Shown: positions 8,099 to 11,459 of the stretch, one piece after another | How positions within the stretch are numbered: the stretch's first letter is position 1 | Layout: every line of letters begins with the position of its first letter | Source: Solirubrobacterales bacterium | Lineage (GTDB): Bacteria; Actinomycetota; Thermoleophilia; Solirubrobacterales; Solirubrobacteraceae | Reading direction: 5' to 3' | DNA: 44,745 nt | NCBI GenBank assembly: GCA_019240655.1 | Contig: JAFAXX010000041.1 | Span: 1 to 44,745 of the forward strand | Notes under the pieces: generated by a model | The model's database searches: none | The model's input: the letters and a program-made list of their open reading frames with translations, nothing else | Told to the model about the DNA's origin: nothing | Translations under genes and position numbers: made by a program

Positions 8099-9106
8099 CT
8101 AGCCGCCGCCTGGCGCGTTCTCGCTCGCCGGGCTATCGACGCCGGCCGGGTGATCGACGCCCGCCGCGTCATCGGCGCCCGTTAAGCGGTCGGCGCCCGC
8201 CGCGTCATCGGTTGGGCGGTCGGCGTCCGCCGCGTCATCGGTTGGGCGGTCGGCGTCCGCCGCGTCATTGGCGCCCGTTGGGCGGTCGGCGCCCGCCGCG
8301 CGGTCGGCGCCCGTTGGGCGATCGACGCCGGCCGGGTGCTCGACGCAGGCCGGGTGATCGGCGCCCACGGCGGGCTCCCTGCCGGAGTCAGCGGCGGTGT
8401 CGGGTGAGGCCGTCCCCGCCGGCGTATCCGCGCCCGGGGCGGCGCCGCCGGCGGTTGCTGGAGCATCCGCGTCGGTCCTCGCCCCGGCGCCCGAGCTTCG
8501 TGCGCCCGTATCCGCGCCGGTCGGGGCTTCCACCTCAGCCTTGCCCTCCGCGCCGGCCAGCCGGTAGCCGCGCTGTGCCTTCATCACCTCGCCGCTGCGC
8601 GCCAGCTTCGAAAGCGTGGTGCTCACCGACGCGCGACCGAGCCCGGTGGCGCTCGCAACCTCGCCCGCGGTCATGGCGCCGCCCTCCGGGCCGGCCAGCG
8701 CCGCGAGCACGGCGCTTCTCGTTGCGCCGAACGCGCTCCGCGCCGATGCCGGCAGAGCCGCGCCCGCGCTGGATGAGGCGCCGCCGGTGCGGGAAGCTGC
8801 CGCGCCGGAGCCGCTCGCAGCCCGGCCGCTCGCGCCCCGGCCGCTCGTATCCCGGCCGCTCGCGCCCCGGCCACGCGCCGCCCCGGCGCCGCGACCGCCC
8901 ACCCCGGCGCCACGACCACCCGCCCCCGTCCCGCGACCGCGTGCCCCCGACGCGCGCGAGCTGCGCCCGGGGCCCGACCGCAGCGCGCTGAGCGCGCGAC
9001 GGAGCCTCTCCGCCTCATCCAGGAGCTCCTCGATTCGCTCCTCGATGTCCTCCCGAATTCGTTCGATCACTTGGGCACCTATCCCCCGTTCGCCGGCGCT
9101 GCGCAT
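8099..9106 (-). CDS. Winged-helix DNA-binding protein with low-complexity linkers and repeat tail
   Basis: I do not recognise a named family. The 335-residue protein has four parts. Residues about 13-45 (VIERIREDIEERIEELLDEA) form a probable coiled coil. Residues 45-115 are rich in Arg-Gly (GAGGRGAGVGGRGAGAARGR), hence strongly basic. Residues about 125-185 form a winged helix: ARSAFGATRSAVLAALAG, MTAGEVASATGLGRASVSTT, LSKLARSGEVMKAQRGYRL. The last 150 residues are an acidic Ala/Asp/Gly repeat (ADRPTDDAADADRPTDDAAG). A basic linker plus an acidic tail suggests a DNA-compacting or condensate-forming protein, but this is inference. GTG 9070, just before the coiled coil, is an alternative start. 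Confidence 0.65.
   Translation of the reverse strand: MRSAGERGIGAQVIERIREDIEERIEELLDEAERLRRALSALRSGPGRSSRASGARGRGTGAGGRGAGVGGRGAGAARGRGASGRDTSGRGASGRAASGSGAAASRTGGASSSAGAALPASARSAFGATRSAVLAALAGPEGGAMTAGEVASATGLGRASVSTTLSKLARSGEVMKAQRGYRLAGAEGKAEVEAPTGADTGARSSGAGARTDADAPATAGGAAPGADTPAGTASPDTAADSGREPAVGADHPACVEHPAGVDRPTGADRAAGADRPTGANDAADADRPTDDAADADRPTDDAAGADRLTGADDAAGVDHPAGVDSPASENAPGGG
8201..8270 (-). repeat. 30-bp tandem repeat coding the acidic tail
   Basis: Two identical 30-base units (8201-8230 and 8231-8260) are followed by the start of a third (8261-8268, then diverging). Weaker copies extend through about 8141-8345. Each unit encodes ten residues of the DDAADADRPT type, so the repeat length is a multiple of three and copy-number change would keep the frame. 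Confidence 0.85.
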
Positions 9107-9154: not shown

Positions 9155-10207
9155 TCACCCAGCGAAGCGCCGGCTCGTCGCCGCCAGTGTCTCCCTCGCG
9201 TCGGCCGCCAGCGTCCGGATGATCTCCGCCGCCGGCCGCTCCCGCGCGAGCTCGTGCGCTTGCCCCGCCCACAGGTTGAACCCGTCCGCGTCACCGCGCT
9301 GGCGCGCCTGCGCCCGCAGGGGGCTGGTCACGTGATGGATCTCCGGGTAGGCGCTCGGCGCTGCCGCGCTGTGCTCGGCCTGGAAGCGATTAACCATCCC
9401 GCGAGCGAGGCGCCCCGTGAACGCCCGCGTCAGCCCTGTCGGGATCGCCTCGCGCAGCAGCGCCCGCTGCGCCGGAGTGGTCCCCGCCTCGGGCGCCAGC
9501 ATCAACGCGGTCCCGATCTGCGCCGCCGCGGCGCCGGCGCAGAGCACCGCCGCCACCGCCGCGCCGTCCGCGATCCCTCCGGTCGCGATGAGCGGGATCG
9601 AGACCGACCGGCGCACGAGCGAGAGCAGCGCCAACAGCCCGATGCCCGCCGCCTGCTCATCGTCCACGAAGCCACCGCGATGACCCCCCGCCTCCGTGCC
9701 CTGGACGACGAGCGCGTCCGCGCCCACCTCCGCCGCCGACACCGCCTCCGAGACCCGCGTTACGGTCACCCACACCGACACCCCGGCGTCGTGCAGGCGC
9801 CTCACCGTCTCCGCCGAGGGGCATCCGAAGGTGAAGGACACCAACGGCGGCCGCTCTTCGCATACCAGCTCGAGCTTCGCCTCCCAGCCGTCGTCCTCGA
9901 ACCGCGCCGGCCCCAGCTCGACCCCGAGACGAGCCGCCTCGCCGGCCAGCTCCCGCATGTAACGGCTCACCGCCGCCCGGTCGGCCGGCTTCGGGCTCGG
10001 TACGAACACGTTGACCCCGAAATGACGTTCCGTCCCTCTCCGCACCGCCTCGATCTCCAGCGAGACCTGTTCGGCGCGCTTGTAGCCGGCGGCCAGGAAC
10101 CCGAGCCCTCCGGCCTCGCTCACCGCTACGGCAAGCTCGGGCGTCGACGGACCCCCGCCCATCGGCGCCTGGACAATCGGCCGCGTGAGCTCGCTGATCT
10201 CGAACAT
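9155..10207 (-). CDS. Nitronate monooxygenase
   Basis: From ATG 10207 the protein has 350 residues and the FMN TIM barrel of the NMO/2-nitropropane dioxygenase family: ELTRPIVQAPMGGGPSTPEL at the N-terminus, EAGGLGFLAAGYK, VSFTFGCPSAETVRRL, VVQGTEAGGHRGG (which holds the catalytic His), IPLIATGGIADGAAVAAVL and AAAQIGTALML (phosphate-binding). It oxidises nitronates such as propionate 3-nitronate to the carbonyl, a detoxification step. Its start overlaps the stop of the DsbA-like gene by one base (TGATG), so the two are translationally coupled. Confidence 0.9.
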   Translation of the reverse strand: MFEISELTRPIVQAPMGGGPSTPELAVAVSEAGGLGFLAAGYKRAEQVSLEIEAVRRGTERHFGVNVFVPSPKPADRAAVSRYMRELAGEAARLGVELGPARFEDDGWEAKLELVCEERPPLVSFTFGCPSAETVRRLHDAGVSVWVTVTRVSEAVSAAEVGADALVVQGTEAGGHRGGFVDDEQAAGIGLLALLSLVRRSVSIPLIATGGIADGAAVAAVLCAGAAAAQIGTALMLAPEAGTTPAQRALLREAIPTGLTRAFTGRLARGMVNRFQAEHSAAAPSAYPEIHHVTSPLRAQARQRGDADGFNLWAGQAHELARERPAAEIIRTLAADARETLAATSRRFAG

Positions 10208-10812
10208 CACGCCGCCGCCCGTTTCGAGAGGTGGCCGGCCGCGTCCTCGAGCCGGTCGTCGCCCCAGAACAGCTCGTCCCCGACGGCGAACGTCGGCACC
10301 CCGAAGACCCCGAGCTCGTACGCCGCCTGCGTGGCGTCCCGCAGCGCCGCCTTCACACCCGGGTTCTCCGTCGCCGCCGCCACCTCCGCGCGATCGAGCC
10401 CGACCGCGCCGGCCGCCTCGTATAGGCGAGCCGGGATGCTCAGGTCCGAACCTCGCTGGAAGGCGTCCCGGAACGCGCGAAACGCGAACTCGCGCCCGGT
10501 CTCTTCCGCCAACCCGAACCCGAACGCGAACGTGACCGCCCGCATCGCCAGCAGATAGTCGCTCGGCCACGGGTCCGGCCAGCGCACCGGCGGCAGACCG
10601 TAGCTACGTGCCCTGCGCTCGATCTCCGCCATCCCCGCCTGGCGGCGGCGGTAATCGCCAAGCGCCCACGAGCTCCGTCCGGTGAGCCTGAACAGGCCGC
10701 CGAGCAGCACCGGCTGCCAACGCACTGGGCGCGCCACCAGCGCGTCCATCCGCTCCGCCGCGAGATATGCGTACGGAGAGCCGACGTCGAAGTAGAACGT
10801 CACACTGGCCAT
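10207..10812 (-). CDS. DsbA-family / 2-hydroxychromene-2-carboxylate isomerase-like protein
   Basis: A 201-residue thioredoxin-fold protein beginning VTFYFDVGSPYAYLAAERMD, with PVRWQPVLLGGLFRLTG, helical insert QRGSDLSIPARLYEAAGAVG and the end GVFGVPTFAVGDELFWGDDRLE. The kappa-class GST/HCCA isomerase subfamily has S-P-Y/F in place of the CxxC of true DsbA, as here, and uses glutathione or other thiols. It heads a two-gene operon with the nitronate monooxygenase and is divergent from the XRE-cupin regulator. The 44-base gap holds three CGTTC half-sites that could control both directions. Confidence 0.85.
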   Translation of the reverse strand: MASVTFYFDVGSPYAYLAAERMDALVARPVRWQPVLLGGLFRLTGRSSWALGDYRRRQAGMAEIERRARSYGLPPVRWPDPWPSDYLLAMRAVTFAFGFGLAEETGREFAFRAFRDAFQRGSDLSIPARLYEAAGAVGLDRAEVAAATENPGVKAALRDATQAAYELGVFGVPTFAVGDELFWGDDRLEDAAGHLSKRAAA

Positions 10813-10826
10813 CGGCCGCGGTCCTT

Positions 10827-10853
10827 TCGTTCGGTATATTGAACGATGCGTTC
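10827..10853. promoter_or_regulatory. Operator-like array of CGTTC half-sites
   Basis: Between the divergent DsbA-like and XRE-cupin genes lie TCGTTC (10827-10832), GAACGA (10841-10846) and CGTTC (10849-10853). They form two overlapping dyads: TCGTTC-N8-GAACGA and GAACG-N3-CGTTC. TATATT (10835-10840) sits inside the first dyad and could be the -10 box of the regulator gene. Confidence 0.55.
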
Positions 10854-10856
10854 TCT

Positions 10857-11459
10857 ATGGTAGATGAGACGAGACCGGACGGCGTTCACACGCTGCTGGC
10901 CGGAAACCTCCGCCGGCTGCGCATCGCGCGCCATCTCTCGCTCTCCGAGCTGGCGCGGGGCACCGGGATGAGCAAGGCGACGCTCTCGAGCATCGAAAAC
11001 GGACGCGCCAATCCCACCGTGGAGACCCTCGCCGCGCTGGCCGAGGCGCTCGGGGTCGCGCTGACCGAGCTGCTCGAGGAGCCGCCGGTGGCCGAGATCA
11101 GGGTCGTCCGAGCCGCCTCCCCGGATGGAAGTCGCCGCCTCGCAACCGGCCGCAGCGAACCCCCCGACGGCGTGCCCCAAAGGCTGATCGACACGATCAC
11201 CGGCGGCGACGGGTTCGAGTTCCGACAACTCGAGCTTGCCGCCGAGCAGAGCCGGGAGGCTGCGCCGAGGCCTATCGGGTCGCGCGCGCATCTGTTCATC
11301 ACCGCCGGCAAGCTGATCGCCGGCCCGGTCGAGCGCAGCACGGAACTCGGGCCGGGCGATTACGCGTCGTTTCCGACCGACGTGCCGCACATCTACCAGA
11401 CCGGTCGTCACCCCGCCGAGGCGCTGCTCATCGCACAACGCCCCGCCCGCGCCGGGTGA
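10857..11459 (+). CDS. XRE-family regulator with C-terminal cupin domain
   Basis: A 200-residue regulator. Residues about 12-65 are the helix-turn-helix (LAGNLRRLRIARHLSLSELA, GTGMSKATLSSIENGRANPT, LAALAEALGVALTELL). Residues 80-195 form a cupin (FRQLELAAEQSREAAPRPIG, HLFITAGKLIAGPVER, LGPGDYASFPTDVPHIYQTG). In this family the cupin senses a small molecule and the HTH represses its own gene and a neighbouring catabolic operon. ATG 10857 was chosen because it directly precedes the HTH region and lies after a TATATT box. The divergent nitronate monooxygenase operon is the obvious target. Confidence 0.9.
   Translation: MVDETRPDGVHTLLAGNLRRLRIARHLSLSELARGTGMSKATLSSIENGRANPTVETLAALAEALGVALTELLEEPPVAEIRVVRAASPDGSRRLATGRSEPPDGVPQRLIDTITGGDGFEFRQLELAAEQSREAAPRPIGSRAHLFITAGKLIAGPVERSTELGPGDYASFPTDVPHIYQTGRHPAEALLIAQRPARAG

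What the first reader, a model, noticed from the sequence alone, without database searches (positions are those of the whole stretch)
10827..10853. Alternating CGTTC half-sites in the regulator/nitronate monooxygenase divergent gap
Three half-sites give two overlapping dyads within 27 bp, one of them containing a TATATT -10 box. This looks like a compact operator for the adjacent XRE-cupin protein, controlling its own gene and the nitronate monooxygenase/DsbA-like operon. It predicts that the cupin senses a nitro compound or its product.
Basis: inference. Interest (0 to 1): 0.5.

Follow-up and report, generated by a model that had tools for sequence, protein, structure and literature searches.

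The report
Conserved operator between regulator and isomerase
The short gap between a regulator gene and a neighbouring enzyme gene carries a DNA switch that has been kept in eight related bacteria, and it probably lets the regulator shut off both genes, but the conserved enzyme is an isomerase-like protein, so the proposed link to nitro compounds is not supported.

Summary

I reinterpret it. The operator is the inward 18-bp dyad YGTTCnnTAnAnnGAACR (O1) over the regulator's -10 box; it is unique in this genome and also lies upstream of some other XRE genes. The third half-site is probably the good half of a degenerate second site (O2) over the isomerase gene's -10 box (minus strand 10862-10857; TANNNT in 7 of 8). 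The predicted start points are adjacent.

The nitro-compound idea is not supported: the "DsbA" resembles 2-hydroxychromene-2-carboxylate isomerases, and nitronate monooxygenase lies beside the pair only in this window. Most likely: local XRE-cupin autorepression, a new member of a known kind with an unusually compact promoter layout. Binding and start sites are untested.

The parts
10828..10845 (.). O1: complete 18-bp inward dyad CGTTCGGTATATTGAACG, the proposed main operator
   Evidence: Unique match to YGTTCNNTANANNGAACR in the 4.06-Mb genome, control 0; 10-13 of 13 specified positions kept in 8 of 8 species with the gene pair
10828..10832 (+). half-site 1 (CGTTC)
   Evidence: YGTTY in 7 of 8 species; lost in L082
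10835..10840 (+). predicted -10 box (TATATT) of the XRE-cupin gene
   Evidence: TANNNT at this register in 7 of 8 species; the only plus-strand register above 4 of 8
10841..10845 (-). half-site 2 (GAACG)
   Evidence: GAACR in 7 of 8 species; GTACG in L045
10848..10849 (.). predicted transcription start points: XRE gene near 10848 (+), isomerase gene near 10849 (-)
   Evidence: Inferred from the two -10 boxes; in several relatives a possible start codon falls on the predicted +1
10849..10853 (+). half-site 3 (CGTTC)
   Evidence: YGTTY in 8 of 8 species
10849..10866 (.). O2: proposed degenerate second inward site (YGTTC-N8-AGACG-like), 21 bp downstream of O1
   Evidence: Second best of 142 registers (mean 8.9 of 13, mean over registers 3.6), but its left half is half-site 3, so partly circular; inference
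10857..10862 (-). predicted -10 box (TACCAT on the minus strand) of the isomerase gene
   Evidence: TANNNT at this minus-strand register in 7 of 8 species, the only minus register above 3 of 8
10822..10827 (-). possible Shine-Dalgarno (AAAGGA on the minus strand) of the isomerase gene
   Evidence: Sequence by eye; not tested
10857..11459 (+). XRE-cupin regulator, 200 aa
   Evidence: Pfam HTH_3 2.7e-18; PDB 1y9q over residues 13-193; model matches 1y9q and the XRE cupin domain 6b8w
10207..10812 (-). 2-hydroxychromene-2-carboxylate isomerase/GST-kappa-like protein (DSBA fold), 201 aa
   Evidence: Pfam DSBA 9.7e-31; PDB 3fz5 and 2imd isomerases
9155..10207 (-). nitronate monooxygenase-family flavoprotein; not part of the conserved unit
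   Evidence: Pfam NMO 9.1e-89; PDB 3bw2 1.8e-96; not found in the stretches held for 7 of 7 relatives

Best explanation
The element is the operator of a local XRE-cupin repressor. A regulator dimer binds the inward 18-bp dyad O1 (10828-10845), which encloses the -10 box of its own gene, and so shuts its own promoter. A second dimer probably binds, weakly or with the help of the first, to a degenerate copy O2 (10849-10866) set 21 bp (two DNA turns) downstream, which encloses the -10 box of the divergent isomerase-like gene. The two promoters start transcription back to back near 10848/10849, so one or two dimers would shut both. A ligand, probably a substrate or product of the isomerase-like enzyme, would bind the cupin and release the repressor. 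Shown: the sequence pattern, its conservation, its tie to the presence of the regulator gene, and its recurrence at some other XRE genes. Inferred: binding by this protein, repression rather than activation, the role of O2, both start points, and the ligand.
For: Half-site columns average 83% pairwise identity over 8 species, other operator columns 55%, fourfold-degenerate sites of the isomerase gene 50%. Isomerase loci beside the regulator score 10-13 of 13 for O1 (8 of 8); those without it score at most 9 in 21 of 22. The O1 pattern is unique in the genome, control 0. In 51 upstream regions of other relatives of the regulator GTTC-N8-GAAC occurs 5 times against 0.07 in shuffles (maximum 2 in 500 rounds), the everted N3 form once; two relatives carry two complete copies in tandem. 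Of 18 pattern places in 249 genomes of the class (pattern read backwards: 3), 7 lie directly upstream of an XRE gene, including two genomes whose sites I had not seen before the pattern was set. TANNNT boxes on both strands in 7 of 8 species. XRE-cupin regulators of P. aeruginosa inhibit mostly adjacent genes from palindromic sites in core promoters (PMC7901475, sections 7 and 10 read); DbuR protects 44 bp including a 20-bp palindrome and the -10 box (PMC12724383, passages).
Against: No binding, transcript or expression data. L082 has lost half-site 1, and L045 lacks both -10 boxes and has GTACG for half-site 2. O2's right half is poor. One isomerase locus without a nearby regulator (L102) keeps a dyad. 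11 of 18 pattern places are not directly upstream of an XRE gene in the loci held. 48 of the 51 other upstream regions have no exact GTTC-N8-GAAC in the stretch scanned; of the 18 genomes of the order with the best regulator matches, 10 lack the isomerase partner, and of those 10 only 3 (L046, L047, L079) show an inward N8 dyad. The eight species are related, so they are not fully independent.
Confidence: 0.7

Rival explanations
1. The everted 13-bp dyad GAACGATGCGTTC (half-sites 2 and 3) is the real operator, and half-site 1 is accessory.
For: Half-sites 2 and 3 keep their N3 spacing in 8 of 8 species and stay intact in L082, where half-site 1 is lost.
Against: The everted N3 form occurs once in 51 other upstream regions, inward N8 five times; the orphan isomerase locus L102 keeps an inward form; two relatives have two complete inward sites.
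Confidence: 0.15
2. Only the promoters and start codons are conserved; the half-sites are not bound by the regulator.
For: Two conserved TANNNT boxes and the start codons lie within the same 35 bp, and the fixed letters of the plus-strand box are as conserved as the half-sites.
Against: The half-site columns are conserved at 83%; the 18-bp dyad recurs upstream of other XRE genes; isomerase loci without the regulator lack it in 21 of 22.
Confidence: 0.06
3. One reading: the cupin senses a nitro compound or its product and the operator mainly controls nitronate monooxygenase.
For: In this window the monooxygenase gene overlaps the isomerase gene by one base and is close to 2-nitropropane dioxygenase 3bw2, so co-transcription here is likely.
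Against: No relative of it in the 12.5-16 kb stretches around 7 of 7 other pairs, and it is found in 1 of 30 isomerase loci of 2.2-3.6 kb, the window's own. The operator is conserved regardless.
Confidence: 0.06
4. The regulator activates one of the two promoters instead of repressing both.
For: A divergent regulator can block one gene and help its own leaderless gene, as proposed for ForZ in Streptomyces formicae (PMC12421854, passages). NceR, which the DbuR paper counts among XRE-cupins, activates ompA according to its title (PMC10470515, search listing).
Against: O1 covers the -10 box of the regulator gene, not an upstream position; the XRE-cupins whose regulons were determined in P. aeruginosa are inhibitors (PMC7901475, section 7).
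Confidence: 0.1

Closest known systems
XRE-cupin repressors of Pseudomonas aeruginosa (PsdR, PauR, ErfA and others; PMC7901475, PMC10965056)
   Same: HTH plus cupin; binds a palindrome in the core promoter next to its own gene; neighbours mostly enzymes or transporters; mostly one or two targets.
   Different: Half-site letters differ (PsdR TTAAG-N5-CTTAA); PauR (29 genes) and PsdR (also lasR) reach further; the layout here is a back-to-back divergent promoter with one full and one degenerate site.
DbuR of Pseudomonas putida (PMC12724383)
   Same: 20-bp palindrome, 44-bp protected region that includes the -10 box, between dbuR and dbuA.
   Different: Different letters (AATTCT...AGAATT) and target (D-amino acid oxidase operon).
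Bidirectional promoters of bacteria (PMC12825309, passages)
   Same: Two opposite start points so close that one polymerase excludes the other.
   Different: Those share one symmetrical -10 box with starts on either side of it or within it; here two separate -10 boxes flank a common start point.
Leaderless TANNNT promoters of Mycobacterium tuberculosis (PMC3898074, passages)
   Same: TANNNT box centred 7-12 bp upstream of the start, no conserved -35, many start codons at +1.
   Different: Here predicted only; in this window the regulator's ATG is 9 nt after the predicted +1.

Membership tests
XRE-cupin transcriptional regulators | N-terminal Cro/C1-type HTH | tested here: met
   Pfam HTH_3 2.7e-18, residues 18-72
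XRE-cupin transcriptional regulators | C-terminal cupin domain | tested here: met
   No Pfam cupin hit at 0.001, but 1y9q aligned over residues 13-193, and the model matches the XRE cupin domain 6b8w at 1.4 A over 79 columns. Limits: model mean pLDDT 75, pTM 0.47, linker poor; whole-chain superposition on 1y9q, the top hit, is poor (TM 0.38, 14.6 A)
XRE-cupin transcriptional regulators | Palindromic site in the core promoter of a gene adjacent to its own | tested here: met
   By sequence only: O1 over the predicted -10 box, conserved in 8 species; binding not tested
XRE-cupin transcriptional regulators | Represses its target | not testable with these tools
   Needs expression data
HCCA isomerase / GST-kappa (DSBA superfamily) | Similarity over full length, Ser rather than CxxC at the active-site turn | tested here: met
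   3fz5 7.7e-19 and 2imd 1.2e-12; DVGSPYAYL aligned with DFLSPFSYL of 2imd; that this Ser is catalytic is recalled
HCCA isomerase / GST-kappa (DSBA superfamily) | Isomerises 2-hydroxychromene-2-carboxylate | not testable with these tools
   Substrate unknown
Bidirectional promoter with shared -10 element | One symmetrical -10 box serving both directions | tested here: not met
   TANNNT in 7 of 8 at two separate registers, 10835 (+) and 10857 (-)

The most novel reading that the evidence does not exclude
A bidirectional promoter in which two -10 boxes point at one common start point, each enclosed by a copy of the repressor's operator, with both mRNAs leaderless or nearly so. If the start codons at +1 are the ones used, the two genes' start codons share the four bases CATG at the operator's centre in L086 and are one base apart in L010, so in those species the whole switch lies inside the two coding sequences with no intergenic DNA to speak of.
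Probability: 0.4. Interest if true: 0.5.

Novelty: new member of a known kind. Interest (0 to 1): 0.38.

Why it matters
It gives a testable operator (YGTTCnnTAnAnnGAACR) for a group of XRE-cupin regulators in one order of Actinobacteria (the named relatives are Solirubrobacter pratensis, a Solirubrobacteraceae and a Thermoleophilaceae bacterium), a group for which the listing showed me no experimental work on regulators. It names the conserved partner gene, which redirects the ligand search from nitro compounds to the isomerase-like enzyme. If the layout is right it also shows how small a two-way, regulated promoter can become.

Tried and rejected
Chance: rejected by shuffles and, more strongly, by conservation. 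CGTTC as an enriched word: not enriched. CGTTC-N8-GAACG alone is not specific: 25 places in this genome, control 6; with the central TAnA it is unique. A regulon beyond this locus: none in this genome with the full pattern. The three-half-site pattern hit 2 of 399 genomes of the class, both at this gene pair, but it was made from these sequences, so this is specificity, not independent proof. Relatives outside the class: in 396 genomes of the phylum, 2 besides the window's own matched at 1e-27, and the 150 bp upstream of each shows no inward N8 dyad. PuuR's site, recalled as AAAATATAATGAACA, resembles part of O1; none of the 10 papers listed of 271 holds that string, so I do not use it. A paper that ties an XRE-cupin to nitronate monooxygenase or HCCA isomerase: none among the 12 listed of 49. 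NaoA literature (10 listed of 28) and PMC9951944 (passages) gave nothing used; PMC12565409 (passages) says XRE sites are often palindromic and autoregulatory but shows no GTTC or GAAC motif in its text. Leaderless divergent genes: (8 listed of 9) gave only the ForZ example used above. Metal-binding cupin: the histidine motif is not kept in the window or its three closest aligned relatives, so a metal-based sensor looks unlikely; not pursued.

Dropped before counts: I left out the gene-pair loci, duplicates (L058, L087-L091), pattern loci L002-L004, and L011-L043 (33 of the 36 loci, mostly matched over the HTH only). Searches used the 30 best isomerase places that were given as loci, out of matches in 109 of 232 genomes. 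One search tested L080-L091, of which L080-L086 hold the pair. Several loci are one place fetched again (for example L008, L075, L081, L096) and were counted once. The score label says 12; the pattern has 13 specified positions.

Full report
What is there. The gap 10813-10856 lies between a minus-strand gene (10207-10812) and a plus-strand gene starting with ATG at 10857. It holds CGTTC at 10828, GAACG at 10841 and CGTTC at 10849, as reported. CGTTC is not a frequent word here (101 found, 101.1 expected), but the alternating triple within 27 bp is the only one in the window; 2 of 300 Markov windows and 1 of 200,000 shuffles of the gap produced one.

The genes. The plus-strand gene encodes a Cro/C1-type HTH (Pfam HTH_3 2.7e-18) with a C-terminal cupin that Pfam did not report at 0.001 but that is supported by the match to PDB 1y9q over residues 13-193 and by the predicted fold: top hit 1y9q, then a series of HppE-like HTH-cupin enzymes, and the XRE cupin domain 6b8w at 1.4 A over 79 columns. 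The model is of middling quality (mean pLDDT 75, pTM 0.47) and the whole-chain superposition on 1y9q is poor (TM 0.38), so the relative placing of the two domains is unreliable. The minus-strand gene is in the DSBA superfamily, but its best solved relatives are 2-hydroxychromene-2-carboxylate isomerases 3fz5 and 2imd and GST kappa, with a serine turn (DVGSPYAYL) and no CxxC there. Below it, overlapping by one base, is a nitronate monooxygenase-family gene close to 3bw2.

Relatives. A scan of genome contigs and whole-genome searches found the divergent isomerase/XRE-cupin pair in eight species including the window's: window, L008 (Solirubrobacter pratensis), L009, L010, L044, L045, L082, L086. 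These eight are among the 18 of 232 genomes of the order whose regulator match reaches 1e-27; the other 10 have no isomerase relative in the loci held, and of these 10 only L046, L047 and L079 show an inward N8 dyad. None of the other 27 genomes of the window's own genus reaches that threshold with the pair, so the pair is patchy. The three half-sites stand at the same spacing in all eight; L082 has lost half-site 1 and L045 has GTACG for half-site 2. Over the 26 bp the mean pairwise identity is 71%; half-site columns 83%, other columns 55%, fourfold-degenerate sites of the isomerase gene 50%.

Control. Of the 30 best isomerase loci in the order, 8 have the regulator next door and score 10 to 13 of 13 for the O1 pattern in the 200 bp upstream; 22 do not, and 21 of these score at most 9. 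The exception is L102, with TGTTCGTTATGACGAACG (12 of 13) and no relative of the regulator in that genome at 1e-8 (genome 66% complete). So the dyad goes with the regulator gene, not with the isomerase gene as such.

Which dyad. In 51 upstream regions of other relatives of the regulator, GTTC-N8-GAAC occurs 5 times (shuffle mean 0.07, maximum 2 in 500 rounds) and GAAC-N3-GTTC once. The five lie in three loci: L007 with one, and L134 and L137 with two complete sites each, 27 and 28 bp apart; the other 48 have none in the stretch scanned. L046 and L047 have an inward N8 dyad that contains the start codon and so lay partly outside that scan. With the central TAnA the pattern YGTTCNNTANANNGAACR is unique in this genome, control 0. 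In 249 genomes of the class it has 18 places in 17 genomes, against 3 for the pattern read backwards. Seven of the 18 lie directly upstream of an XRE gene: window, G004, G220, G196 (two), G040 (with a cupin by eye) and G228 (no cupin by eye); the sites in G040 and G228 had not been looked at before the pattern was set. G232 has an XRE gene nearby but on the wrong side, and G166 and G245 have one about 0.8 kb away; these are not counted. So 11 of 18 have no XRE gene directly downstream.

Promoters. Scanning every register of the eight aligned regions for TANNNT, only two reach 7 of 8: 10835 on the plus strand and 10857 on the minus strand (mean over registers 0.12; next best 4). The first is the regulator's -10 box inside O1. 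The second, the complement of ATGGTA at 10857-10862, is the best candidate for the isomerase gene's -10 box; it would explain why the codon at that place is ATA, GTA or CTA in 7 of 8 species, and it persists in L044, where the ATG itself is gone. The predicted start points are 10848 (+) and 10849 (-). A possible regulator start codon falls exactly on its +1 in L009, L010, L044, L045 and L086; a possible isomerase start codon falls on its +1 in L086 and 3 nt after it in L010. Other in-frame start codons exist: an ATG 9 nt further on for the regulator in L009, L010, L045 and L086, and ATGs upstream for the isomerase in L010 and L086, so the start codons used are not settled. L045 has neither -10 box, so its case is weak. 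In the window the regulator's ATG is 9 nt, and the isomerase's ATG 37 nt, after +1.

Model. O1 encloses the regulator's -10 box. Half-site 3 begins a second inward site, O2, 21 bp downstream, enclosing the isomerase gene's -10 box; its right half is degenerate (AGACG-like), and it is the second best of 142 registers (mean 8.9 of 13), though half of that score is half-site 3 itself. One or two dimers would block both promoters. This is inference; nothing here shows binding.

Against known systems. In P. aeruginosa the XRE-cupins act as inhibitors, mostly local, that bind sites in core promoters beside their own genes, mostly next to enzyme or transporter genes; the three known consensus sequences are palindromic and differ from each other (PMC7901475, sections 7 and 10 read). 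DbuR protects 44 bp including a 20-bp palindrome and the -10 box (PMC12724383, passages). PsdR binds TTAAG-N5-CTTAA and also the distant lasR promoter (PMC10965056, passages). The present case fits this kind with its own half-site. TANNNT promoters and leaderless genes are common in M. tuberculosis (PMC3898074, passages). Bidirectional promoters in E. coli share one -10 element (PMC12825309, passages), which differs from the two boxes here.

The nitro hypothesis. No relative of the monooxygenase was found in the 12.5-16 kb stretches around the other seven pairs, and among 30 isomerase loci of 2.2-3.6 kb only the window's has one. The hydrolase and luciferase-like neighbours are not shared either. 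The ligand is therefore more likely tied to the isomerase-like enzyme. Nothing here identifies it.

Noticed in passing
L102 (G436), just upstream of the isomerase-like gene: Isomerase locus without a nearby XRE relative keeps one inward dyad TGTTCGTTATGACGAACG; an orphan operator, or a regulator lost or missing from a 66% complete genome.
   Followed up: partly
L149 (G228), site at 1501-1518: Perfect 18-bp palindrome TGTTCAGTATACTGAACA directly before an XRE gene whose C-terminal part does not look like a cupin (by eye); the half-site may be shared beyond XRE-cupins.
   Followed up: partly
L152 (G114) and L153 (G124), sites at 1501-1518: Perfect palindrome TGTTCCGTATACGGAACA in two genomes with no relative of the regulator in the 3-kb loci; frames nearby look like flavin oxidoreductases (by eye).
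   Followed up: no
L086 near 7750 and L010 near 2500: Possible start codons of the two divergent genes share CATG (L086) or are one base apart (L010), at the operator's centre.
   Followed up: partly
window 8099-9106 (-): 335-aa frame with a weak MarR/TrmB-like HTH (below Pfam cut-offs) and long Ala/Gly/Asp-rich repeats of the type DRPTGAD.
   Followed up: no
window 10795-10799 (-) and 10883-10887 (+): Two more copies of the half-site word inside the flanking coding sequences; their conservation was not examined.
   Followed up: no
genomes of the window's order: The regulator/isomerase pair is patchy: 8 of 232 genomes, and only the window's among 28 of its own genus, which could mean transfer as a unit or repeated loss.
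   Followed up: no
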